Of a stretch of 64,000 nt of DNA, positions 24,381 to 58,100 are shown in pieces. The notes below the pieces were generated by a model. That model saw nothing but the letters and a program-made list of their open reading frames with translations. It was not told the DNA's origin and did no database searches. The translations under genes were made by a program, and so were the position numbers. This DNA is from Dysidea avara. Lineage: Eukaryota; Porifera; Demospongiae; Dictyoceratida; Dysideidae. The stretch lies in the NCBI RefSeq assembly GCF_963678975.1, contig NC_089274.1, positions 2,282,001 through 2,346,000 on the forward strand, read 5' to 3'. The first letter of the stretch is position 1. Each line of letters opens with the position of its first letter.

Positions 24381-27300
24381 TTAACTTTGACAGTATGTCA
24401 GGAAAATTGCAATCAACCACAATGAGATATACACTGGCCAAACTATCCAAGCGCGATCTCTTGGTATTAGCAATATTAATGTTGCTAGCATTGGCAAAAT
24501 TAATATTCCTGGCAAAATTAATATTGCAATTAATACTGCAAATGATATTGCTATCATTGGCAATACTAATATTTCTAGTATTTTACACAATATTGACCAT
24601 ATCAATATTCCTGGCAATAATAGTATTGTTAGCAAGAGATCACAACAGTTGTAGCTATTTGCTAGTGTGCTGGGTTCTGGATAAACTAATAGTGGAGGTA
24701 GTGTAGATCTTCTAATAGACCTCATAGTATTAGCAGATACTTTGTTATGTGAAAGGTCCAGTTGTTGCATTGATGAGTCTGGTGTATAATTTATACCCAT
24801 CCAGATAGCTCTAGCTCCATCATCAGATATATGGTTATGTGAAATGTCAAGTACTTTTATTGTCATGTTTCCTTCCATGGCTTTTCCAATTTCCATGGCT
24901 CCAACATCAGTAATTTTATTTGCTGAAATGTTAAGACTGCTTAGTGTTCTGTTGCTTTCTAGACTTTTACTGATAGTTACAGCTCCATCATCAGATATAC
25001 GGTTATTTGAAATATCAAGGATCTGTAATGCTGTATTTGATTCAATGGCTTCTGCTAATCTCACTGCTCCATTGCTAGTTATCTTATTATCTGACAAGTT
25101 CAGGTTGTTGAGTGCTTTATTCTTCTTTAAACACTCACTTAGAGCCATAGCTCCATCATCACATATTCTATTACGTGAAATGTCAAGTGATTGTAAAGCA
25201 AAATTTGTCTGAATTGCTTTTCCAATTATAGTTGCTTCACTCTTGGTTAACATATTTTCTGATATATTCAGACTCTGCAGTACGTTGTTATTTTCTATAC
25301 ATTTACTTATACATCTAGCTCCCTCAGCAGATATGCAATTGCATGAAAGATTTAGTGTTTGTGTTGTGGTATTGTTTTCTAAAAAAGCTGATATGAGGAT
25401 TATCCCAGTGTCCCCATAGTGTTTATTAGATAGATCATATGACTTTAGTGTGGCATCAAGAACAAGGTGATTATTATTCCATGATACACTCAGATATTGT
25501 AAAGTTTTGTCTTTTTGGAGGCACTCAGTGATAGCCAATGCACCATCATCAGAAAAATTATTACATGAAATATCAATTTTATGCAGGATTGAATTTGCTT
25601 TAATACCATCTGCAATCACTTTAACCCCAGTATTAGTTATTTTATTATTGGACAGGTTAAGGGTATGAAGAGTGTTGTTTTTCTTAAGATACTCACTGAT
25701 GGCTATAGCTCCATCATCAGATATGTTGTTGTATGAAACATCAAGTGTTTGCAATGCCAAGTTTGTTTCAAGTGCTTTTCCAATTACTTTAGCTCCAACA
25801 CTAGTTATGTTGTTGTTTGACATAAAGAGATTTTGAAGTGTACTAGAGTTCTTTACACATGTGCTTAATGACAAAATTCCATCATCAGATATGTCATTAC
25901 ATGCAAGGTTCAATGTCTGTATTGTAGCATTGTTTTCAACAAAAGCTGATATAAAAATTGCTCCAGTATCCCCACAGTGCCTACTGGATATATAACATGA
26001 CTTTACCGTAGCATCAAGAACAAGGTGACTGTTATCCCATGATATGCTCAGCTGTTGAAAAGTATTACTCTTATTGAGGCACATAATGATAGCCAGCACA
26101 CCATCATCAGAATCTTTATCATATGAAATATCAAGGCGCCGAACTTTTGTAGTTTCTTTAATGGCACTAGCAATCTCTTTAAACCCCATACTAGTTATTT
26201 TATTGCCCATCAGATTTAAACTTTGAAGTACACTCGTACTCTTAAGATACTGACATATAGCTACAACTCCATTATGAGATATGTCGTTATATGCAAGATT
26301 CAACGTTTGTATTGTAGTATTGTTTATTAAAAAGGCTGATATGAGAACTGCTCCAGTGTTCCCATATTGTTTATTTGACGCATTTATCGACTTCACTGTT
26401 GCATCAAGAATAAGGTGATTGTTATTCCATGATATACTCAGTTGTTGTAAAGTCCTGTACTTCTTGAGACACTCTGAGACAGCCAATATACCACCATCAG
26501 AAACTTTATTGTATGAAATATCAAGTATTTGTAGAATTGAATTTGCTTTGATGCCATCTGCAATTTTCTTAACCCCAATATTAGTTATTTTATTATTGGA
26601 TAGGTTAAGGTTCTCAAGAGTGTTGGTTTTCTTAAGATACTCACTGATAGCTATAGCTCCATCATCAGATATGTTGTTGTGTGAAACGTCAAGTGTTTGC
26701 AATACCAAATTTGTTTTTAAGATAGCTCCCACATTTTTAATTTTGTTGTTTGATAGGTTGATACTCCGAAGTTTAACTGTATTGTTAAAGTACTCACTTA
26801 TAGCTTTAGCTCCATTATCTGAAATGTTATTACATTCAAGATTCAAGATTTCTATCATGGTGTTGTTTTCTAAAAAACCTGATATGAGAATTGCTCCAGT
26901 GTCTCCATAATGTTTATTGGATAGATCGTATGACTTTAGTGTAGCATCAAGAATGAGGTGATTGATACTCCATGATATGCTCAGGTGCTGTAAAGTATTG
27001 TCCTTCTGGAGAGACTCAGCGATAGCTAGTGCAGCATCATCAGAAAAAATATTACACGAAATATCAATTTTTTGTAGAGTTGTGTTTGTTTTGATGGCTT
27101 TAGCAATTCTTTTAGCTCCAACACTGGTTATTTTATTGCCTGCTATATTAAAAACTTTAAGTGTACTTGTGTTCTCAAGACACTTACTGATAAACACAGC
27201 TCCATCGTCTGTTATGCTATTACATGCAAGATTCAATGTTTGTATTGTAGAATGGTTTTCTAAAAAAGCTGATATAAGAATTGCTCCAGTGTCCCCATAG

Positions 27301-27573
27301 TGTTTATTGGAGAGATCATAATGTTTTATTGTACCATCAAGAACAAGGTGTTTACTGTTCCATGATATGCTCAGGTGTTGTAAAGTACTGTTATTTTTTA
27401 GATACTCACTTATTGCCAGTGCACCATCATCAGAACATTCATTATATGAAACATCAAGTCTTTGTAGAGTTGAGTTTGTTTTAATGGCAATAAGACATTC
27501 ACTGATGGCTATAATTCCATCATCAAATATGCTGTTGCCTGAAATGTCAAGTATTTGCAACATTGCATTAATT
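24381..27573 (-). CDS. NLR gene, 3' part: LRR array plus hydrophobic C-terminus
   Basis: This open frame of over 1060 codons continues the LRR region of the NACHT gene beyond an inserted MITE. The repeats are the ribonuclease-inhibitor type of about 28 residues: LxxLxLSxNxIxDxGAxAIxxxLxxN. A distinct module, LSISWNNNHLxLDAT...NKHYGDTGAILIS, recurs five times at alternating distances of about 130 and 181-186 residues. NLR LRRs usually sense ligand or hold the NACHT domain inactive. The last 85 or so residues are unusual: LLLTILLLPGILIWSIL, further LPGILILPMLATLILL-like runs and WPVYISLWLIAIFL, which could form three or four membrane segments. I know no NLR family with such a tail, and the coding DNA there is repetitive, so a slipped or low-complexity origin is possible. 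With the MITE in place this part has no start codon of its own in a good context. Confidence 0.75.
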
Positions 27574-27822
27574 GTGACCGGGCCTGCGAAAACAGGGCAT
27601 GTGGGCACAAACTACACCCCATCACTCTACAGGTCATATCTCAGTATTGGAAATGTATATTTCCATTCTGTAACTTGCTTCATGATGCCAATTAAATGCT
27701 TACGTAGAGCTGAAAATTGCAATGCCATAGCATAATGGTACAAAATGTTATGAGTGATGAAAGTGTGAAAAATTAGGCAAAAATCATGTGCCCACATGCC
27801 CTATTATCGCAGGCCCGGTCAC
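27574..27822. mobile_element. MITE inserted in the NLR coding exon
   Basis: The ends are inverted repeats of about 36 nt beginning GTGACCGGGCCTGCGA and differing at only a few positions. AATT flanks both sides (27570-27573 and 27823-27826). If the element and one AATT are removed, the LRR frame on both sides joins in phase and the repeat pattern continues, which is strong evidence for the exact insertion point. In the present state the upstream frame meets a TGA 39 nt into the element. A decayed relative lies at 54329-54563. Confidence 0.85.
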
Positions 27823-30800
27823 AATTGGTATAACTACTCCAAGCTCTTTTACTCTGACACAAGTTACTTTATTACCTGATATGTTAAGATTTTGAAGAGC
27901 ATCATTGGTTTTGAGACACTCTCTGATAGCTAAAGCTCCACTATTAGATATGTTGTTGTGTGAAATGTCAAGATGTTTAAGTGTGTTGTTGTTCTTAAGA
28001 GAGTTGCTGATATCTGAAACTCCATCATCGGATATGTTGTTATGTGATAGATCAAGACTTTGAAGTGCATTGTTGTCTTTTAGATACTCACTAATAACCA
28101 TTGCTCCATCATCAGATATATCACTACTTGAAAATTTCAGTGTTTTTACTGTAGTGTTGTTTTGCAAAAAAGCAATTATAAGAACTACTCCAGCATCTCC
28201 ATAGTGTTTATTGGACATATTCCATGCCAAAACAGCAGCATTAAGAAGTAGGTAACAATCATTTGACCATGATATTTTAAGCATTTGCAATGATTTATTC
28301 TTCTTGAGATGCTCACTAAAAGCTAACACTCCAACTTCAGATATGTCATTACCTGAAACATCCAACCTATGTAAATTTTCACTAGTTTGAAATGAATCTG
28401 CAATGACATTTAATCCGTCATCGGATATATTATTTTTTGACACATTAATCTCCTTCAAAAAACAATTATTTGTAATACAATCACTTAAGTATTTGGCACC
28501 AATATCAGTTATGTTGTTTTGTGACAAGTCCAGATGAACTACAGTTTTATTATTGTACAAAACACCTGCAATAATTTGCACTGTACCATCTCTAATATTA
28601 AGTCCAGATAATTTTAGTCCTTTATGTTTTGTGTTGATCAACTTACTGCCCTTATTCCACGATATGGTTATATATTGAAGTGTAGTGTTGTGTTTTAATG
28701 ATTCACTTATAGCAATTGCTCCATCAGTAAATATATCATTATTTGAAATGTCAAGTTCCTTTAAAGTGGTGTTGTGAAGTAAACCCTTAGCTATTTTCTT
28801 GGCTGCGTTATCATTAAAAGCATTACCAGATATATCTAGTGATTCAATTGTATTGTTATTATGGAGAACAGTTACTATCTCATCAATATCCACTCCTCGA
28901 AGTGAAGACCAATCCAACTTTCTAAGATGCTTTGGTTTAAATATGGAAAGGTAAACATTCCACAAAAGAACAGAATCATTTCCAAACAAATCAACACTTT
29001 TTATGTTTGATGCCTTTTCAGGATATGTAGAAAAATATTGTTGTAATATCCCCATACCAATATCACCAATATGGCAGTCTCGGAGGTTTATACTAAGTAC
29101 TTGTACATCATATTTGGAAATGTATGACAGCAGTGATGAAATGTTATGCGGATGTAATTTACTAATGCCATGAAAACTAATTTCTCCATTTTGAAACAGA
29201 CAAGATATCTCTTTGAGAACTAACTTACTTTTTGCCTCTATGAAACACTGAACCATATGGAGGCATTTTATTTTATTGGATTTAATATCCCTTGAAAAAG
29301 TCAGCATATCCCCTTTAAGTTTACATAAAAATTTATCAAATACTTTTGAAGATACTCCATTAATTCCAGCATACATCATCCACATAAAATTATATTTGCC
29401 TTCCCAAAATGTTTCTCCTACAAGTGATATTTTTTGCTTTTCTGATAAGTAGATACTAACATAAAAAGCAGCCAGATATTCTTGCATAGTAAAATGTAAA
29501 AAATTGAATGAAGCAGTTTTTCCAGCTCCTCCTCCTGGAGAAAAATGTTGCACAGCTTGCAACAACCCAAAACCATTTAGAACTCCTGGAATACTATCAA
29601 TTTGAGAAATGTGGGTTTTTATTTCATTGTATGTAAATACTAATTGATTATTCTTTAATCCCACAAAAGCTAATTTTGACAAATTACAAACAACACCATA
29701 GACATTAGGATCTGTAGGCAGATTTTTTAAGGTTTTAATTTCAGTATTTACACCAGATGGAACTAAATCATGTTTAGCCATGTTACGATATATTGTATGA
29801 AGTATAAAAGACTCATTCATTTCTGTGAGAGTTTCAAACAATATGTTGTGTTCTTTAAACAAGTAGAGAAGTACTGCTAAATGAAGAGGAACATACACCA
29901 AACTATTGATGATGGGGTGGCACTTGAGATACACTTTTAATTGTTCTTGTTTATCAGGCATTTCTTTGAGTGATTCCATGATATATTTCTCACGTTCCTC
30001 TTGAGCAAACCCAAGAATTTCAATTCTTCGGTCAACCATGTCATGTAAGTGCATAGTAGCAGTTGGTCGTGAAGTGACTACCACTATGGAATTGGGAAAG
30101 ATTTTACCTTTTATCAGATCAGCAATAAATGATTTTTTACGCAAAAGTTCAGGATATTCATCATAACCATCCAGTATCACACATATCCGCAATTCTTTTA
30201 AACATGCAATTAGTTCAGTCTGTTTGTGTTTAAGCTTTAGGTCATCACACATGTATCTCGTTATATATTGAGCTAACTGGGCCTCAGATTCAATTTCTTT
30301 TAACACAGGATCCCGGAGAAACAACAAAATTAGAATAGATACATTTTCCAACAATTCTCCTTTTGCCCAAAGATAAGATATTTCTTTTGCCAAAACAGTT
30401 TTTCCTATTCCAGGTGCACCTTCAATTAGTATATATTTTGGTGTTTTATCTACTTCATAATTAGTACCAGAATCCTCCAAGTCATTATGATAAGCTGCAA
30501 ATATTTCATTAATATTCTTAGTAACCCGGGTATATGAATGTGAATTTTTAATTAATTTGGATTGTGAAGATGCTAACATGTCTGCAGTAGTAGTGCCATC
30601 TTTGTAACGACTAGTTATCTCAATCAACTCTTGTTGCGTTCGCCTGCCTCTATAGTGTACTAAAGCAACATTAACAATAGTTCTCGGTTGCTTAGGTGGC
30701 CACTCATCTTCTTCATTTCTATCCCTTTTTTCAGTATAATCCTTACATAGCATGTCTACTACCTGTTCAGAAATATCTGCAGTGCTTTGGCTCACACTAT

Positions 30801-30824
30801 CCAATCCCTTATATGATATGGCTT
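27784..30824 (-). CDS. NLR gene, 5' part of the long exon: NACHT NTPase and LRRs
   Basis: The frame opens at a good acceptor (TTTTGTTATCAG before 30824) and runs about 1010 codons. No ATG stands at its start, so it needs the upstream exon; the phase fits the DEATH exon at 33304-33576. Order: a linker (about 1-130) with a basic ALVHYRGRRTQQEL stretch; NACHT with Walker A GAPGIGKT near residue 140; Walker B VILDGYDE near 220; a TSRPTAT sensor-1-like element; helical NACHT-associated region; LRRs from about 590 to the end. NACHT domains oligomerise on nucleotide exchange, and NLRs act as intracellular sensors. DEATH-NACHT-LRR layouts are known from sponges. The frame ends in the MITE at a TGA (27784-27786), so unless the MITE is spliced or skipped the protein is cut before the remaining LRRs. 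Confidence 0.88.
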
Positions 30825-32769
30825 CTGATAACAAAAGAGAAGTAGTTATTGAAAATATAGACTGTCACTTACAACTGCAACTATCATAAATTACAAAAGT
30901 TTCAAGTGACTTAAGTTTGAATTGCTAAAATTCACCGTACTTTTATTTCAGTTTAACTGTATGTTCAAATTTAAAATACTTGGGCCAGTTTCAGGTGTAA
31001 AACACATGGTGAGGTAAGCGATGTCTATCCTGAATTACCTAGCTTCAAGCCACTGATGATTGACTACTATATAGAGGGCCTGTTGAATCAGGAAGGCAGA
31101 AGTGCTCATTTAACTATTGCTTCTACCAACGCTTTGATTTGTTTCATGATGGAGAAAATGGCTGCTGGCAATTTAAGAGGACCTTAATCTGCAGTTAACT
31201 CCAGCACTGCCATGCATAGGTAGTAACGGCAGTGTGTGAGTTAAAAGGGAAAGCAAAAGGTTGTTCTACAATGTGAGCTGATGTGGTTCAACACTGCATG
31301 GGTTGTTCATTGTCCAAGTTCTTATAACTTCACAGTTATTTAGGTACAAAATAAAGTGCATGTTTTAATGGTTAGATTTCACAAAACTTTGAATCTCAAA
31401 CTACAACACTATAGACTATCACAAAAGCCATTTAATAGGTAAAAACAATTTGACCACCCAAAAAGAATTTATTTGGTGCATTAGCTGTGCAAATGGGCAT
31501 TGTACGGCTTTATATAATCAGTTCAGTGCCACCTTCATGGGGTATCATGTATAATATATCCCATGAAAGTTCCTTAATAAGGAGTAACACCTAATCACAA
31601 GACATGTATACACTGTAGTGTGTTGTGTGGCTCAAGAAGCTGGCGCACACCACACCGTGACTTTATTGATAGGAAGAAAGAAAACATTATTTCATGCATA
31701 CATAGCTCTGTGATCCCTTACCAAAATGAAACAAATTATATGGTGGAGTTGCCCACTTAGTACACATACCAAGCTTGAAGGAACCCCCAAAGCCATTCCT
31801 AAGATACAAGCAACCAAGGTTTCAGGTTTTTTCATCCTTATTTCTTCTTATCCTTCTCCTTCATTTTGCATTCTTTGCAAAAATCACTATAATACACAAA
31901 AAAAAATCAATTTGTAGATAGATTAACTGTCTGGAAATCTTATCTTGTCAGGGAAACCAGCCTTCCCTGATATGTCAGGGAAACTAACCATCCGCAAACT
32001 ATGAAGCTTAACACTCTTGGATAGAAAAGTTAGTGGAAACTGAGATGTCCTTGGATGAACACCAATAGAACAGTCATTTTTGCAGTGAAATGCTCTAATA
32101 GTAAACTTTATGGGTTGTTTTTTTTTCATTTATTTTTTTACCATTAGATGTTGCTTGTGCTTGGACACAGCAATGTCAAACTGTAGGAAGATAGTTAGAA
32201 TATTTTCACATCACTACAAACTAGATACGCTTACTACACACAATAACTTCTATGCCTTGCAAACTTTCACATTGTATAGGGGTGTAGGGAGGGGAGTTCA
32301 GGTAAAATTTAGACTTAAATTTAGCACTTTACTGACTAAATATTTCAGATATTAGAACAAACCATAATCTAGGAATCAAACAGTGGAAAGTATAGTTTCC
32401 AACATGTTGGAGACTTTAGATGGTTTGAAAAAAATGAGGCAAATAGCATGGAAATATAACATGAAACCAAACGTGTGTGTAACAAATGCACAATCGAATT
32501 TTGTGAATAAAAAACCATTAGTTGTCATGCCTACCAGGCAAAATGTTTAGGGAAATGAGCTGAAAATAAGTGTGCAGATGGATTAATCATCATAGAATTG
32601 CCTTTCAAAGATATAGAAGAATAAGATTAAAAGCCACTGAGTTGTAATGCAAAAACCAACTATGTGTAGCAAGTACATGATCAAGATATTCTAATAGTAC
32701 AGTTACCCTATTAGAGCATTCAACTACATTATAAGTCACTCTATTAGAATGTTCGAGTTGCCCACCCCG

Positions 32770-45600: not shown

Positions 45601-47902
45601 TAAGTTTTGTGATTATCTATAGATAATACTCTCTTTGGAAACTTCATACTTTACTTATAAAGTAGGCGGTAGAGTTTTTAACTAGACATGCCCTGATGGC
45701 AGCAAGCTACATGAGTGCATCTATAGCTATTTTTCCAGAAAAACATGTGTGTATTGTGTGTATTGACTCTGTCTGTGTATTTACTTCCTGAAAAACAATT
45801 TGACTAACTTATCACAATATGCAAAAGGGGGTGTTACACAAAATGATTTAGCATTATTCATCAGGTAGATGTGAAATTTCTCACCATCCATAGCTCTAAT
45901 AACGCCATGCAGATCAATGTATATTTATTTTTAGCTGTATTATGTATTAATGGTCTGAGCTGGAATATTACAAGTTGATTACCATTATAAACAGATAACT
46001 TTGAATGTCTCAATATACAGTAAAGATTGTGCTTCTAATGTGTTCTTGGGTTGCTTTTGTAAGCCAAAATTTGTCATGACAGATTACTGTTTACAGTTGA
46101 TTCTATATTGTTATCTACACAAAACAGCCAAGCTGTGAATAAAGGGTGCATCCTGCAAAAGCCTGAGTGAAAAAAGTTGTGAAATCAAAGATGGTGACCA
46201 AGAAATGTAACAATGGCTGATTAATATTATCACTAACATTATTACAGCCATTTCTTATATAGTCACCACCTTTGTTTCCCAACTTTTTTCAGACTGCATC
46301 CTTCTTTCATATGTTCCTGTGGGCTTGTATACTTTATATAAGCACCTCCAAAGTCAGCATTGGCTGGCTTTGGGATTTGTTTAAACATATTTTTTTTCTG
46401 ATTTAAACCTGGCCTGCTACTTTTTTTTGTGCACTTTTATCCCTTATGTTCTATTAAAAGTATCTCAACTCTACAATTTTGCTCTTATTTGGTTTTTGCT
46501 TTGTAATTCTGTAGATATAAACATCAAAAGGCACTTCTATGATCTTTGCCTATGCACACACCAATTTTTAAGTTATTCCATGCATACTCTGTTTATGTGC
46601 TCTTTCTCTGCATCAAAAATTTTAAGGCAATTGAGGTACATGTTTGCGTTTTATAACAAAGTGTGCTAAATGAAGCAAAATCTTAGATGAAAAAGAACAA
46701 AACTCATATCTCAGAATGGCTGGAGTAAATTCAAAGTTTGGTATTTGGCCTGCCCTACTTGGTAGACAGGAATAATGCAAAAACTGTATGCTTTAGACGG
46801 AGCTATGCATGCATGGAAATCATGTTTTCTTTCTGCCTGTCAATATATGCACTGTGTGATCTGCTGGTTTTCCTGATCACACGATGCACTACCATGGCTT
46901 AATATTCAGTACTTTTCATAAAATACTAAAACCGTTGTTTTGCTATTTGCTTACAGTTCAAGATTTTTAGGGGATTCATCAATTTAGTATCTTAACAAAA
47001 TATTTCTTCTATGAATTGAAATGTTCTACTGAGTGTAGTACACATGTTCTACCGAGTGTAGTACACATGATCTACCGAGTGTAGTACACATGATCTACCG
47101 AGTGTAGTACACATGATCTACTGAGTGTAGTACACATGACTTGCATATTACATTTTGATGACAATCTAAATTTGCTCACAACTAAGTTTATTTTGCATAT
47201 ATGCATGTTTTTCTTTCTGTGTAGATTGTTCATCACCCAGCTACAGTTGTTCCAGCATTTAAGCCAAAGAACTTCCTTACATTTTCTCTCATCAACATTT
47301 TCTTCTGTTGTATTGCTTTTGGGATAGCAGCACTGATATTTTCACTACGGGTTAGTGTGGTAAATTAAGTATTTAAAAGGGACATCTGTGTGCTTTCATA
47401 TACAACAAACAGTATGGTCTCATTTACAAAGCTGTATTTGAACTCAGCACATCTTATGTATAATATAGGGAATGTTTAGATGACCCTATACATCCAGGAT
47501 CTTCAGCTTTTGTTTCTTTACAAATATGATAACAGCTCTAAATGTAAATTGTATAATATGTTATTAAGTACTGGTTTAATGGAGGCTGTGTGGCTGCTCA
47601 AGTCACTACCTGGTGTATTCAATATAGCGTTTTAGTGTTACTCTCTGCTTCACATGGTTTAGCCTTCTTGTAGCTAGTCCCTAGTAGGGTAGTGAATAAT
47701 TTTTCATCATGACTGTCTTATCTTACAGGTTGATTCATATTATGCTGCTGGCAGGATCACAGAAGCTTGGGCTGCATCAAATATTGCCAGGAAGTTGAAC
47801 ATGTTAGGACTTATCATTGGGATAGTCTTCTATGTTGTTGCTAGCATTTTAGTTGTTGTATTACTCACTATTGATGACCATGATGAAGTTAATGACAATT
47901 AA
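39615..47902 (+). CDS. CD225/dispanin (IFITM-like) membrane protein, copy C
   Basis: Four exons: 39615-39708, 45034-45068, 47225-47350 and 47729-47902. Phases (1, 0, 0) are the same as in copy B, giving 142 residues. Exon 1 encodes a short tail starting MSNYREVTYSSYPSPSSSYQ. Exon 3 encodes IVHHPA...PKNFLTFSLINIFFCCIAFG, the first CD225 membrane segment with a Cys pair. Exon 4 encodes DSYYAAGRITEAWAASNIAR, the conserved loop, then a second membrane segment and an acidic end. The first intron is 5.3 kb and holds fold-back and family X repeats. A 23-nt tandem repeat precedes exon 3. All splice sites are canonical, so the gene looks functional. An antiviral or trafficking role is only inferred from the family. 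Confidence 0.83.
41012..41218. mobile_element. Fold-back MITE
   Basis: The two halves are inverted copies. AACTTGCTAATTAAAG, CACCCATTTCGCTC and GAATATTCATCC on the left pair with GGATGAATACTTG, GAGTGAAATGGGTG and CTTTAATTAGCAAGTT on the right, and the ends ACGGTACC and GCGGTACTGT also pair. It lies in intron 1 of CD225 copy C. Confidence 0.75.
41590..42060. repeat. Dispersed repeat family X, copy 2
   Basis: It shares the ordered words of family X with 35650-36070 and 50590-51110. A reverse pair of ATACTCTAATAG motifs lies just beyond its right side (42092-42135). Confidence 0.5.
42845..43000. repeat. Dispersed repeat, second copy of 10480-10645
   Basis: CACTTCTTATTGTTTTA, CCAGCTTGTTTCAGTAC and AAAATTCCAAATTTTTT match the copy in intron 1 of CD225 A in order and spacing. 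Confidence 0.5.
43560..43945. repeat. Dispersed repeat shared with 51050-51375
   Basis: Common words in order are GGGCTTGG, AACCAATACTG, CCTAATATACAGTACTAT and TGTATGATAAT. A (GGCA)n run sits at about 43705-43727. In the other copy it directly follows family X, so it is probably the other half of the same element. Confidence 0.5.
47023..47139. repeat. 23-nt tandem repeat, five units
   Basis: The unit GAGTGTAGTACACATG plus RTCTACY is repeated five times with few differences. It lies about 85 nt upstream of exon 3 of CD225 copy C. Each unit contains the partial palindrome TGTAGTACACA. Confidence 0.85.
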
Positions 47903-49263: not shown

Positions 49264-50196
49264 TTAGGAGTTTACTTGCAATTTATTACCAGTAAATGCT
49301 TTCAATAACTCTTTAACTCTTTCATATCCACTAGCTGCAGTAGCAACTGAATCAGGGTTAGTGCCAGTTTCTGACGCTACTACAAGCAATTCACCTATTA
49401 ACACAGCCTGAAAACCAGCATCACGGAGTTCCCACACATCAGTAACCTCTTTGATTCCTGATTCAGCTACAGCAATAACTCCTTCTGGTATTAATGGTCT
49501 TAACCTCTTTGAGGTTTCAAGGGTGACTTTAAACGTACGTAAATCTCGGTTATTAATCCCAATAATTTCAGCACCAGCATCAATGGCAATTTTAAGTTCC
49601 TCTTCATCATGTACCTCTACAAGAGCATCCAACCCAACTGCATGCGTAACTTCAATGAACTCTTTAGTCCGTTCACGAAGAACTGCAGCAATCAGTAAAA
49701 CAGCAGATGCTCCACACACTGCTGCTTCAGCAATCTGAAACAGATCGATGATGAACTCCTTCCTCAATACTGGGCATGGACCAGGAGAATTCCCTAGGTA
49801 TTGTTTTTGTGAATCAACAACTTGCACTAAATCATTAATGCTACAACCAAAGCCTACTTCATCAGTGAGGACAGAAATGGCAGCAGCCCCACCCTCATTA
49901 TACACTTTTGACAGCTGACCAGGGTCACGAATGTGTCCAATGTGACCTTTACTAGGGGATCTTCTTTTGATCTCAGCTATCACTGAAATAACACCTTTTG
50001 GCTTATTTATAGCATTATAAAAATTTCGTGAACGCTTTATTTGGTTTCCATCCAATGCACATTTGGCCCTGGCCACAACCTGCGCAGCAGGATGACTTCT
50101 CCCGGTAGTTTCTGGCGTTTCTTTCTTTAAATTATCGACCTCTGTTCTTTTCCTCTCTACAATCACTTCCAAAATATTTGGAATATTATCAACCAT
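49264..50196 (-). CDS. trpC: Indole-3-glycerol phosphate synthase, intronless
   Basis: A single 310-codon frame from an ATG (50194-50196) to TAA. The enzyme closes carboxyphenylamino-deoxyribulose phosphate to indole-3-glycerol phosphate in tryptophan synthesis. The (beta/alpha)8 signature residues are all present: VIAEIKRRSPSKG (Glu75, Lys77), VLRKEF (Lys146), ALVEVHDEEEL (Glu194), IGINNRDL (Asn215) and VAESGI (Glu245, Ser246), in the spacing of the family. So the active site looks intact. The last phosphate-loop motif reads LIGELL where a Ser or Ala is usual after the first variable position. The length is slightly above bacterial single-domain TrpC because of about 50 extra N-terminal residues. 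No fused TrpG or TrpF is present, unlike fungal enzymes. Animals are normally tryptophan auxotrophs, so this is probably a transferred gene. Intron-rich animal genes and animal repeats on both sides argue against symbiont contamination. Confidence 0.93.
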   Translation of the reverse strand: MVDNIPNILEVIVERKRTEVDNLKKETPETTGRSHPAAQVVARAKCALDGNQIKRSRNFYNAINKPKGVISVIAEIKRRSPSKGHIGHIRDPGQLSKVYNEGGAAAISVLTDEVGFGCSINDLVQVVDSQKQYLGNSPGPCPVLRKEFIIDLFQIAEAAVCGASAVLLIAAVLRERTKEFIEVTHAVGLDALVEVHDEEELKIAIDAGAEIIGINNRDLRTFKVTLETSKRLRPLIPEGVIAVAESGIKEVTDVWELRDAGFQAVLIGELLVVASETGTNPDSVATAASGYERVKELLKAFTGNKLQVNS

Positions 50197-50242: not shown

Positions 50243-50250
50243 TGACGTCA
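50243..50250. promoter_or_regulatory. CRE-like palindrome upstream of trpC
   Basis: TGACGTCA, the CREB/ATF consensus, stands 47 nt upstream of the trpC ATG. An 8-nt site can occur by chance, but the position suits a promoter element of the minus-strand gene. Confidence 0.35.
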
Positions 50251-50589
50251 TTTAAAAAGTAAATTGCACAATCAAAATTGGATATCAGGAAGAATTCATT
50301 CAGACAAGTCATTAATTGATGGCATAATTTACTCTGGGGATACTGCAATCGAGCAATTATTCTATTAACTCCTCCAAAGGAAGTTAGCCATTACCACTAA
50401 AATTATGATGCATGCAATAATCTATTTTTGTTCCAGAATATAATCAGTATAATGCAACATGCTCTATGTACAGGACACATGTGTGAAATACAATACACAT
50501 ATATACAAGTCCAATTAGGGAATTTTAAGTTTGATTGTAGATCAAAAGAAATGAAAGCAGTGAAACAAGGGAGGTTGCCTATACCTGAA

Positions 50590-51375
50590 AATCTACTAGT
50601 GGACATTTAATCCCTACTTCATGGTCTATACCCATGACTGAATTAGGAATTAAACATCCACTAGTAAACTGTCAGGTGTAAGTGATCCCCCTTATATTTC
50701 ACTACTTCCCTAATTGAACTTAAAATTCCTTGTACTGTTTGTTTACTTCTTTGCAACATTATGACTGGTGAACCCACTCGTACTGCATTAGAAGGATAGC
50801 TCCAGGCTTATTGTTTTCATCTAAGTAACTATTACTTATACTGAAATAGCGAAGTGGCCATGACGCTTATTTTCAGCTACGTTCAGCCCGTTACAAACAA
50901 AGAACACTACATGTACATCTGCAATCAATCCAACAACTTGGGACGATTCCTATTATATACAAACATAGGGAATCCATCACTGCAAATTAACATTAGCAAA
51001 GATGAATGGAACACAAAGGAGGACACAGGTGTATAAATTCATACAGCATACTGCGGTATGCCAAAAGGCTCCTGTCAGGCTGAAGTGACATTGAACAGTG
51101 AAAAAATCTAGCCTTAACTGTTATGCTTGTCTGAAGGTAGTCAGTCAGTAAAAAAATCCACTAAATACATTTATTCGTTGTAACCTATTGGAAGCATTTC
51201 AGGTCATACAAGGCACTTCTGGGCTTGGCTATACCTAACCAATACTGCAAAGGTGCCATGAAGGTAACGTGGGGCTGGTTTAAGGGTGACATTTTTGGTT
51301 ACAGGTTACAAAAGCCCAAACCTTCATGATCCCTAATATACAGTACTATTGTATTGTATGATAATTTGTATGCAC
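50590..51375. repeat. Dispersed repeat family X, longest copy (3)
   Basis: The left part (50590-51110) matches 35650-36070 and 41590-42060. The right part (51050-51375) matches 43560-43945. This suggests an original element of about 0.8 kb. No inverted ends or protein were found. Confidence 0.5.
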
Positions 51376-51616: not shown

Positions 51617-51787
51617 GTTGATGTGGAACAAGTAAGCAACGACTTGCCAGCTTCATCCTTGGCATCTGTATTAGCAAAGAAATTAAGTATTACTGGAATC
51701 ATATTCCCTTTAATCTTCGTTGTACCAGCACTGGTAGTTACTGTAATTCTTTTTGAGACTCCATGTTTTATTGTACAACAGCAATAG
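51617..51787 (+). pseudogene. Orphan last exon of a CD225/dispanin gene
   Basis: An ATATAG acceptor is followed by GTTGAT, as in copies B and C, then a phase-0 frame of 56 codons ending in TAG. It reads VDVEQVSNDLPASSLASVLA, then a hydrophobic segment (SITGIIFPLIFVVPALVVTV). The glycine-rich loop YAAGR is lost. No matching exon 3 was found upstream, so it is either a remnant of a fourth copy or an alternative last exon for copy C, whose exon 3 has a compatible phase. The trpC gene lies in between on the other strand. Confidence 0.5.
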
Positions 51788-55100: not shown

Positions 55101-58100
55101 ATACAGTTTATAATACCCTGTATAGTTAAACAGTTGTTTGTCTTAAACATAATTGAATACCCATCTAATAGTGACATCTTAGGGATAACATTAAACTGCA
55201 GGCAGGGATGGCCAGTATATAGCTCCTGATTCTGTCAATAATAATGCATGTGTAAATGAAATAATAAGGATACAGGCTCTGTAAGGGTCTCCTGAGCATA
55301 CAGGTTAGCTCCACTGTGTTTCATGTGGCAATTTAGATCATAGCATGAGCGATCAGCACATCCCACACATTCAACCCAACCCTGCAAAAGGGGTGGAGCT
55401 ACAGTACATAACTTACAGGGCTACACTACAGCACGTACATAAGAGGTGTGGCACTCTGCATCCCAACAGTCACAAGCGTAGTGAGCCATCTCAGTATCAA
55501 GATGTTGTCTAAACCGAAGCTTCTTTTCATCTACACCAATCTTCTTTAAGAACAGAAAAATCCTTCCTAAATAATAGCCCACTGTCTCATTAGCTATTAA
55601 TCCCTGAAAGAACAACTGTAACAAAAGCTACAGTAAATGACCAACTAACCTGCTTAACAGCATCTCCTAGGCTCAATGGTGCTGCTGGTTCTCCTGACAT
55701 TTGATTTCCAGATGAGAACAATGTTACAACTAGCTGAGATACTGATGAAAATTTGTTGTGATTTTGTTTCTTGTTGGGATGTACAAAATATTCAATTTCT
55801 GCCATCATGAATTCCCTACAGTGAAAGTTGACATGACGTCAGGAGATATACAGCCCCACCCACCTAACTCTGAGGAGCCCTGCTCTCGGAGAGACTTCAT
55901 TACGAAATGCATGTCCTATCTGAGCTGCACCAAATGGAAGACGACCATTGTTGAATTCTAGTAGCCGTTTGAAGTTGACAAAGATACCCTGTGATGTCTC
56001 AGGGCGAAGAAATCTGTCCAACAAACAATAAATCGAGAACGTAACTTTTGTGTATTGTAATGCACACTAGACTACACATTGCACACCCATGCATGCATGT
56101 ACACACAATACATACTGTGATGACAGTTTCTATGCTATCACAACAAACACAAGCAACTCACGCTGGTATACCATGATCAGGGCCAATATCAGTACCAAAC
56201 ATCAGATTAAATGGCTGAGGAGGAGACACCTCGTTCTTATTGATTGGTGACACCACCTTGTATTTAGCAATCACTTCACCCAGCTCTTCTACAGAGTATG
56301 ATTCAACCTATAGACCACACACACACACACACTGCATTTATTACACATCTAGTATGGCATTCTTTAGTTAAGATATGTACACCACTATTCAGTGGATAGG
56401 ACTACTGTACTGACATTTGAGATTTTACACATGCTGTGATTGGATATATTGAGTCTCACTAGTTGACGACCTTCAGGGAGCTTGCAGCCTGCTCCTAAAA
56501 TGATGAATGTGAGTAATACATCTTGCAGTATTTTGGGTAATTGGTAAAAGTGACTGTTTTTAATGCACTAAGTATAGGGAGTTCAAATTTGGTCCATGTC
56601 CAAGTGCAAACCATCAGGTCAAAAGTTGGAACAAAGTGTCACAACCAATGCACCATAATTTACTGATCTTGTATATGGACAGTGTTGGCTACCTGAAAAA
56701 TAATACAACCACACAAGAGTTGTTACTACGTATTCAATTCAATATACTGGATTGACTATTTTGAATTGTATGCATGCTATGGTTGGATTCACTTAGTGCC
56801 TTTAGGGAACCTGCAGTATGCTACTGAATGATGAATATGAGTAGTGGAATAAGAGAATACTCTCTTCTAAGGATTTCATTATTATTTATGCATTATGCTA
56901 TATATGTAGTACTACTCTCCTTACCGCTGTGCTGCTGGTAACATGATAGCGATGCCCAACAAGAGGGTTGTGGATAAAGTGGTGAGCATGTACACTCATT
57001 GACAAGTTAATAATCATTTACCATCTCTAACACATTTCCAGCAGCACAATGGCAAGGAGTGCATAACAGCTCATTATAAAATCCTTTGAAGGAAGTTTTC
57101 ACTTTAATATTTAATATTCCACTAGGTTCCTTCATGATAACACTTCGGGTGTCCTTGCATATGTAGAATGAATTATGTACAGACTGTAACTTGGGTAGGA
57201 TAATAAACAACATAGATTGATATGCATATGTGTATGTGACCAATGGTCTATTATTTCCATACTTTTCTCAGTACTGTGTTATACTCTTCTTTCTTTTCAC
57301 TTGGACACTTTGGGTCTGCCAACAACTGCTCAATGTGCTCGACAAGGAGTTTGTCGGCACGGAAACATTCCCCAGTCTTGACATCCTTCACCATGTAGTC
57401 AGCAAACCGATCAACATGACCTGATGCCCTACACAGGAGATCAACCTGTAGTGTCTAAACTGCATGTTACCATAGATACTAAACTAATAACACAGGATTG
57501 GAAGCTCCGTTTCATGCACTGACATTCCGGAAGTAGTTAATTTGGCTGTTGCATCAAACACATTAGTTGCATTGCTACCTTGGTTGCTATGCATTGTTAT
57601 CACAATCACAAGAAGGTCATTGGCGCATATTCCAGGAGCTGTAAGTTCGTCCACATGGCACCAAAATATGTAATTGCTACACTGAGCCACTCTAAAATCA
57701 CTTGGTTTCAACATGATTACAACAAATGTCAGGAGGGTGCTTAGAAATACCCAAACTGGATACATAAATTAAGTGACTACACACTTGGTAATCACTGGAA
57801 TAGCGCTGGAGAAGATGTTGAACTGTACCAATGTGTGGTAACAACCATTTGAAATTGTCTCAAATTAATACAATGTCACTAGCTTTACTGCTATGTCTAT
57901 TATCAAGATAATGATGGGACATCATAATTATGACTAACATAGTTGTTGAGATTTACCTCCCAGCCCCTATTTTCGACCAATCGGAAGCCACAAATGGGCT
58001 ACTTACATATATACATCCTCTCAATGTCCAAGCATCCACATTCAACAACACAATTCAACAAATATTATAGACAAGAGGACAATACCAACCACCCTACATA

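What the first reader, a model, noticed from the sequence alone, without database searches (positions are those of the whole stretch)
49264..50196. Intact stand-alone trpC inside an animal genome
The frame keeps all catalytic residues of indole-3-glycerol phosphate synthase and has no intron, while the neighbours have three to fifteen. Animals lack tryptophan synthesis, and fungal TrpC is part of a fusion. A transferred gene kept intact suggests a use, perhaps making indole-glycerol phosphate for indole compounds or exchanging intermediates with symbionts. That use is speculation.
Basis: partly seen in the sequence, partly recalled or inferred. Interest (0 to 1): 0.78.

Follow-up and report, generated by a model that had tools for sequence, protein, structure and literature searches.

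The report
Lone bacterial-type trpC gene in animal
An animal chromosome carries one intact bacterial-type gene for a single middle step of tryptophan synthesis, apparently an old and still selected gift from bacteria, although the neighbouring steps of the pathway were not found in the genome.

Summary
[quoted passage not shown] It keeps 38 of 38 columns invariant in 40 bacterial IGPS. It lies 2.33 Mb inside a 50.3-Mb contig of a genome with Wnt genes, hence an animal, between CD225 exons and a glycyl-tRNA synthetase exon. Codon usage and CpG depletion are host-like, which with the context argues against contamination or recent arrival. It is the only IGPS found; trpB, trpD and trpF were not found, and trpA only on a 1-kb bacterial-looking scrap; trpE did not complete. 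Best reading: an old bacterial transfer kept as an active IGPS outside a tryptophan pathway, fed by microbes or by host anthranilate (a kynureninase cluster exists). Donor not resolved. No eukaryotic IGPS could be compared, so ancestral origin is unlikely but not excluded. Expression, activity and use are untested. The searches made found no report of an animal IGPS.

The parts
49264..50196 (-). trpC / IGPS open reading frame, 310 aa, single exon
50243..50250 (.). perfect 8-bp CRE palindrome TGACGTCA (name recalled), 46 bases upstream of the ATG, possible proximal promoter element (one of 2 in the 64-kb window); suggestive only
49282..49287 (-). AATAAA hexamer formed by the codons Asn-Lys near the end of the ORF; possible poly(A) signal with a very short 3' UTR; weak, may be only codons
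50490..50738 (.). imperfect foldback (nested inverted repeats, 73-76% complementary) about 300 bases upstream of the gene, MITE-like by appearance
47225..47899 (+). two CD225 (interferon-induced transmembrane / dispanin-like) exons, 47225-47365 and 47696-47899, host gene on one side
55842..56066 (-). glycyl-tRNA synthetase exon, host gene on the other side; further exons up to about 61667 read by eye only

Best explanation
A bacterial trpC entered this animal lineage long ago and became an ordinary single-exon host gene. Selection has kept it as a working, probably cytosolic IGPS, which closes the indole ring of CdRP (the Amadori product of phosphoribosylanthranilate) to give indole-3-glycerol phosphate. 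The neighbouring tryptophan enzymes TrpA, TrpB, TrpD and TrpF were not found in the chromosomes, so it most likely does not serve complete tryptophan synthesis. Its substrate most likely comes from tryptophan-making microbes taken up or housed by the animal, or from adducts of host anthranilate (a kynureninase product) with ribose phosphates. Shown: gene, context, host-like composition, conservation, predicted fold, partners not found. Inferred: direction and age of transfer, enzyme activity, substrate source, use.
For: Full-length IGPS; predicted fold pLDDT 89.9, pTM 0.89; 38 of 38 columns invariant in 40 bacterial IGPS kept, and 52 of 55 columns at 90% or more; the N terminus aligns with bacterial starts. 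Placed 2.33 Mb into a 50.26-Mb contig, CD225 and GARS exons on either side, animal genome by Wnt, 27 matches, best 1.2e-49, 0 of 14 prokaryote controls. Codon log-likelihood under NACHT/LRR codon use -1.095, held-out host pieces -0.982 to -1.074, 80 bacterial trpC median -1.85 with 1 of 80 scoring higher; CpG o/e 0.43 against a bacterial median of 1.22, 1 of 80 lower. One IGPS in the genome; trpD 0, trpF 0, trpB 0; trpA only on a 1000-base 54.5%-GC contig with frame breaks. The same search does find a split host enzyme: 16 kynureninase stretches, one checked and confirmed.
Against: No expression data, no sister-species copy, so no dN/dS. No eukaryotic IGPS was available for the tree; the window's end branch is long (1.26), no starred clade holds it in the careful tree, and the quick tree warned that its branch and that of L005 are long and meet. 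trpC lies just outside the range of host pieces in codon score, and low-GC bacterial genes such as L047 score as host-like. Exon-by-exon search could miss a divergent partner gene split into short exons; trpE did not complete. CRE and AATAAA may be chance.
Confidence: 0.62

Rival explanations
1. The transferred gene is kept for a new job other than IGPS catalysis, as PfAMR1, an IGPS-derived protein, is kept in tryptophan-auxotrophic malaria parasites.
For: trpB, trpD and trpF were not found and trpA only on a bacterial-looking scrap, a situation like that described for Plasmodium; the PfAMR1 precedent is in PMC6380595 (passages).
Against: In PfAMR1 key functional residues are not conserved, whereas the window protein keeps all eight checked and 38 of 38 invariant columns; that points to the original chemistry.
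Confidence: 0.15
2. Vertical retention: an ancestral eukaryotic IGPS survived in this lineage after the fused partner domains were lost.
For: TRP3 is described in choanoflagellates (PMC4339202 passages), and InGPS entries not marked as fusions are listed for some algae and alveolates (PMC3942023 passages). No eukaryotic IGPS could be put in the tree here.
Against: No other Pfam domain in the ORF, so no fused amidotransferase or PRAI; no introns although the CD225 neighbour is split; trpB, trpD and trpF not found; animals examined in print lost the pathway on the stem lineage (passages).
Confidence: 0.12
3. Contamination or misassembly: a symbiont gene joined into the animal scaffold.
For: The assembly does hold bacterial scraps: contig C99 (1000 bases fetched) bears a bacterial-looking trpA.
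Against: Animal exons on both sides in one gap-free window; host-like GC3, codon use and CpG depletion; no other bacterial-type gene was noticed in the six-frame reading of the flanks, though that reading was by eye.
Confidence: 0.03
4. A transferred gene with no present use, on its way to decay.
For: The neighbouring pathway genes searched for were not found and no transcript evidence is at hand.
Against: An open frame of 310 codons with all 38 invariant columns kept and host-like composition is not expected without selection.
Confidence: 0.06

Closest known systems
Bacterial monofunctional IGPS, TrpC (PF00218; PDB 1vc4 and 3qja, recalled as Thermus and M. tuberculosis enzymes)
   Same: Full domain, stand-alone, all eight checked active-site residues, 37-45% identity over the alignment to 40 bacterial members
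   Different: Sits in an animal chromosome; extra residues around 31-48, 131-139 and at the C terminus that few of the 40 bacterial relatives share
PfAMR1 and other IGPS-like proteins of apicomplexans (PMC6380595, passages)
   Same: Orphan IGPS-family protein in a eukaryote that lacks tryptophan synthesis
   Different: PfAMR1 lacks key functional residues and the paper treats it as functionally diverged; the window protein is canonical at every residue checked
Horizontally acquired prokaryotic genes in sponges (Amphimedon, PMC4784904: passages and section 7; Spongilla, PMC10176882: passages)
   Same: Bacterial-type enzyme genes proposed to reside in animal genomes, some with host-like composition
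   Different: 'Indole' and 'tryptophan' do not occur in the main texts of these two papers (supplements not seen); here a single step of an anabolic pathway otherwise lost by animals. That this animal is a sponge was not verified
Shikimate-pathway genes of cnidarians reported as bacterial transfers (mentioned in PMC6040629 and PMC4237138, passages)
   Same: Aromatic-biosynthesis genes regained by an animal from bacteria
   Different: That is an upstream pathway; here one late, isolated step
Choanoflagellate/yeast TRP3 and other eukaryotic IGPS (PMC4339202, PMC3942023, passages)
   Same: Same catalytic domain in eukaryotes
   Different: Several of those are part of fusions or larger pathways; the window gene is a lone domain. 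Not compared by sequence

Membership tests
Indole-3-glycerol phosphate synthase (EC 4.1.1.48, PF00218) | Full-length IGPS domain above the curated cut-off | tested here: met
   231.2 bits against 27, profile positions 4-247 of 254
Indole-3-glycerol phosphate synthase (EC 4.1.1.48, PF00218) | Catalytic and substrate-binding residues present | tested here: met
   E75, K77, K146, E194, N215, R217, E245, S246 identical to the aligned residues of 3qja (roles recalled); 38 of 38 invariant columns kept
Indole-3-glycerol phosphate synthase (EC 4.1.1.48, PF00218) | TIM-barrel fold | tested here: met
   Confident model, pLDDT 89.9, pTM 0.89, eight strands alternating with helices; structure comparison could not be run
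Indole-3-glycerol phosphate synthase (EC 4.1.1.48, PF00218) | Converts CdRP to indole-3-glycerol phosphate | not testable with these tools
   Needs an assay or complementation of a laboratory E. coli trpC mutant
Horizontally acquired bacterial gene in an animal | Contiguous with genes of clear animal origin | tested here: met
   CD225 and GARS exons on either side, 50.26-Mb contig, Wnt genes in the genome
Horizontally acquired bacterial gene in an animal | Host-like composition (GC, codon use, CpG) | tested here: met
   codon score just outside the range of the six host pieces
Horizontally acquired bacterial gene in an animal | Introns gained | tested here: not met
   Single exon; not required of every transferred gene
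Horizontally acquired bacterial gene in an animal | Closer to bacterial than to eukaryotic homologues in a tree | tested here: inconclusive
   Only bacterial relatives available; placed weakly beside Verrucomicrobiia, Vicinamibacteria, Acidimicrobiaceae and Acidobacteria rows
Horizontally acquired bacterial gene in an animal | Transcribed in animal nuclei | not testable with these tools
   No RNA data on hand
Tryptophan biosynthesis pathway | Other steps encoded in the same genome | tested here: not met
   trpD 0, trpF 0, trpB 0; trpA only on a bacterial-looking 1000-base contig; trpE not answered
PfAMR1-type IGPS-like proteins | Key catalytic residues lost | tested here: not met
   All residues checked are kept

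The most novel reading that the evidence does not exclude
An animal-encoded indole route: kynureninase, here a cluster of copies, releases anthranilate; anthranilate forms the ribulose-phosphate adduct CdRP with host ribose phosphates or through microbial enzymes; the acquired IGPS turns it into indole-3-glycerol phosphate, either as repair of a wasteful adduct or as an entry to indole signals or defences.
Probability: 0.1. Interest if true: 0.85.

Novelty: new member of a known kind. Interest (0 to 1): 0.55.

Why it matters
Loss of tryptophan synthesis is one of the losses described for the animal stem. A single, catalytically intact late enzyme kept by an animal without the neighbouring steps would be either a metabolic hand-over point with microbes or an unsuspected indole or anthranilate chemistry. 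It is directly testable with one complementation experiment and RNA data. If a clade-wide survey shows the gene in related species, selection on it can be measured at once.

Tried and rejected
Contamination: rejected on context and composition. Host tryptophan pathway: trpA, trpB, trpD and trpF searched; none found in the chromosomes. Donor: a quick tree with 80 bacterial rows and a careful one with 51 give only a weak neighbourhood. For one search, 29 of the 80 were dropped: mostly actinobacterial and Caldilineaceae near-duplicates, and the two short partial rows L016 and L064. Viral collection: 3 loci at 37-40% identity, not informative. Naming the animal by assembly size: one irrelevant paper. 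A chemistry search on anthranilate-ribose phosphate adducts gave nothing that I could use, so that route is recalled knowledge. Structure comparison with solved folds: never accepted. trpE search: not completed. A 51617-51784 plus-strand stretch that looked CD225-like by eye has no Pfam match. One search's script ended in a parsing error and was replaced.

The statement that I found no animal IGPS in print rests on searches in an open-access library (in 19, 20 and 44 only the first 20 of 88, 21 and 56 papers were listed), and on passages of PMC4784904, PMC4237138, PMC4339202, PMC6040629, PMC10570526, PMC10176882, PMC7385117 and PMC4878875; other listed papers were not opened, and subscription papers and supplements were not seen. 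Of the four papers, PMC4878875 was checked for trpC (an ion channel there); PMC7385117 was looked at for other words only ('tryptophan' 0, 'indole' 0); two were not opened.

Full report
Observation. The minus-strand frame 49264-50196 runs from ATG to TAA over 310 codons. It is an indole-3-glycerol phosphate synthase by Pfam (PF00218, 231.2 bits, E 1.5e-68), by NCBIfam (NF001377, 265.3 bits against a cut-off of 260; 14 models matched at the search threshold and this is the only one over its own cut-off) and by solved structures (49 distinct sequences matched at E up to 0.001, best 1vc4 at 7.5e-42; many of the 49 are engineered enzymes such as Kemp eliminases and retro-aldolases). AlphaFold2 on an alignment with 40 bacterial relatives gives mean pLDDT 89.9 and pTM 0.89, with eight strands alternating with helices.

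Intactness. Of 38 columns invariant in the 40 bacterial rows the window protein keeps 38; of 55 columns at 90% or more it keeps 52, the three departures being A to S at 96, G to C at 118 and D to E at 147. The bacterial rows themselves, left out one at a time, keep a median of 98% of such columns. The eight active-site positions checked on 3qja numbering are identical (their roles are recalled). Identity to the 40 rows is 37-45%. The window protein has extra residues near 31-48, 131-139 and at the C terminus that few relatives share.

Host and context. The window is bases 2,282,001-2,346,000 of contig C3, 50,264,139 bases long, in a 550.8-Mb assembly of 108 contigs. The genome holds Wnt genes (27 matched stretches, best 1.2e-49, none in 14 prokaryote controls); Wnt is recalled as an animal hallmark, so this is an animal. 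On one side lie two CD225 exons (47225-47365 at 35.2 bits and 47696-47899 at 27.5 bits, cut-off 27.1, plus strand). On the other lies a glycyl-tRNA synthetase exon at 55842-56066, minus strand (Pfam tRNA-synt_2b 25.2 bits, below its cut-off of 29.3; glycyl-tRNA synthetase structures at about 4e-22, recalled as human). Further GARS-like exons up to about 61667 were read by eye only; the four of these given to Pfam had no hit. There are no N in the window. Two NACHT/LRR frames of over 1000 codons each (24384-27611 and 27787-30864) show that long intron-free exons occur in host genes here.

Composition. GC3 is 0.277, in line with 0.25-0.27 in the NACHT/LRR frames, though the GARS-like fragments (with ragged edges) have 0.36-0.46. 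Under codon use learnt from the NACHT/LRR frames, trpC scores -1.095 per codon; six held-out host pieces score -0.982 to -1.074, trpC drawn from host codons -1.024 (sd 0.029), and 80 bacterial trpC have a median of -1.85, with 1 of 80 above the window gene. So the fit is close but about 2.4 sd short of perfect. CpG o/e is 0.43; window 0.33; trpC drawn from host codons 0.63 (sd 0.10); bacterial median 1.22, 1 of 80 lower. A low-GC bacterial gene (L047) scores as host-like too, so composition alone is not proof; with the context it argues for long residence.

Signals. A perfect CRE palindrome, TGACGTCA, lies at 50243-50250, 46 bases upstream of the ATG (2 in 64 kb). The local CpG density is not exceptional (3494 of 63940 60-base windows are as dense). 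An AATAAA hexamer is formed by two codons near the stop. These were seen after the fact and are suggestive only. A foldback repeat, MITE-like, lies at 50490-50738.

Pathway. PF00218 finds one place in the genome, this one. trpD (TIGR01245), trpF (PF00697) and trpB (TIGR00263) give 0 matches, while each rings in 14 of 14 control genomes (trpB over its cut-off in 13). trpA (PF00290) matches three stretches, all on contig C99. The fetched stretch is 1000 bases, 54.5% GC, in broken frames, followed by what looks like an accD start (recalled gene order of alphaproteobacteria); I take it for bacterial debris. trpE (PF00425) did not complete. The same exon-by-exon search does find a split host enzyme: kynureninase (TIGR01814) gives 16 stretches in one cluster at C1:61,196,146-61,615,592, seven of them covering profile positions about 187-248, none over the whole-protein cut-off; the family also rings in 6 of 14 controls. 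One stretch, L091, was checked and matches kynureninase structures at 1e-25. Some stretches contain stops, so not all copies need be intact.

Relatives and tree. A quick tree of 81 rows puts the window gene with L005 (Verrucomicrobiia), L006 (Vicinamibacteria), L010 (Acidimicrobiaceae) and L048 (Acidobacteria) at SH-aLRT 95, with a warning that the long branches of the window gene and L005 meet. A careful tree of 52 rows gives the same five at 94/92; no starred set holds the gene and its end branch is 1.26. No close donor and no eukaryotic IGPS is in the set, so the donor and the vertical alternative remain open.

Mechanism. Shown: a complete, canonical IGPS in an animal chromosome, with the steps around it that were searched not found. 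Inferred: conservation of every invariant column over a long branch means selection for the original chemistry, so the protein most likely converts CdRP to indole-3-glycerol phosphate. Where CdRP comes from is not shown. Tryptophan-making microbes are one source; host anthranilate from kynureninase, joined to ribose phosphate without an enzyme, is another (that such adducts form is recalled chemistry; one search found no usable paper). The fate of the product without TrpA/TrpB is unknown.

Comparison with the known. PfAMR1 shows that an orphan IGPS-family protein can be retained by eukaryotes without tryptophan synthesis, but there key functional residues are not conserved and the paper treats it as functionally diverged (PMC6380595, passages). 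Animals are described as having lost the tryptophan genes on their stem (PMC4339202 and PMC6040629, passages). Bacterial-type genes proposed in sponge genomes are a known kind (PMC4784904, passages and section 7; PMC10176882, passages). I saw no report of an animal IGPS in the searches named in Tried and rejected. The finding is therefore a new member of a known kind, transferred bacterial enzyme genes in animals, with an unusual isolated function.

Noticed in passing
G000 contig C1:61,196,146-61,615,592 (loci L090-L097): A cluster of kynureninase-like exons, 16 matched stretches with seven copies of one exon region; possible tandem expansion of kynureninase genes, some copies with stops in the matched stretch.
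   Followed up: partly
G000 contig C99 (locus L082, 1000 bases): Tiny 54.5%-GC contig with a bacterial-looking trpA in broken frames followed by an accD-like start: bacterial debris left in the assembly.
   Followed up: partly
window 24384-30864, minus strand: Two adjacent intron-free frames of over 1000 codons, NACHT plus leucine-rich repeats and a long leucine-rich-repeat array: NLR-type genes or one large one.
   Followed up: no
G000 contigs C4, C13, C15: Wnt matches lie in local groups on three contigs, suggesting lineage-specific tandem duplicates.
   Followed up: no
window 50490-50738: Nested imperfect inverted repeats, a foldback or MITE-like element about 300 bases upstream of the trpC start.
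   Followed up: no
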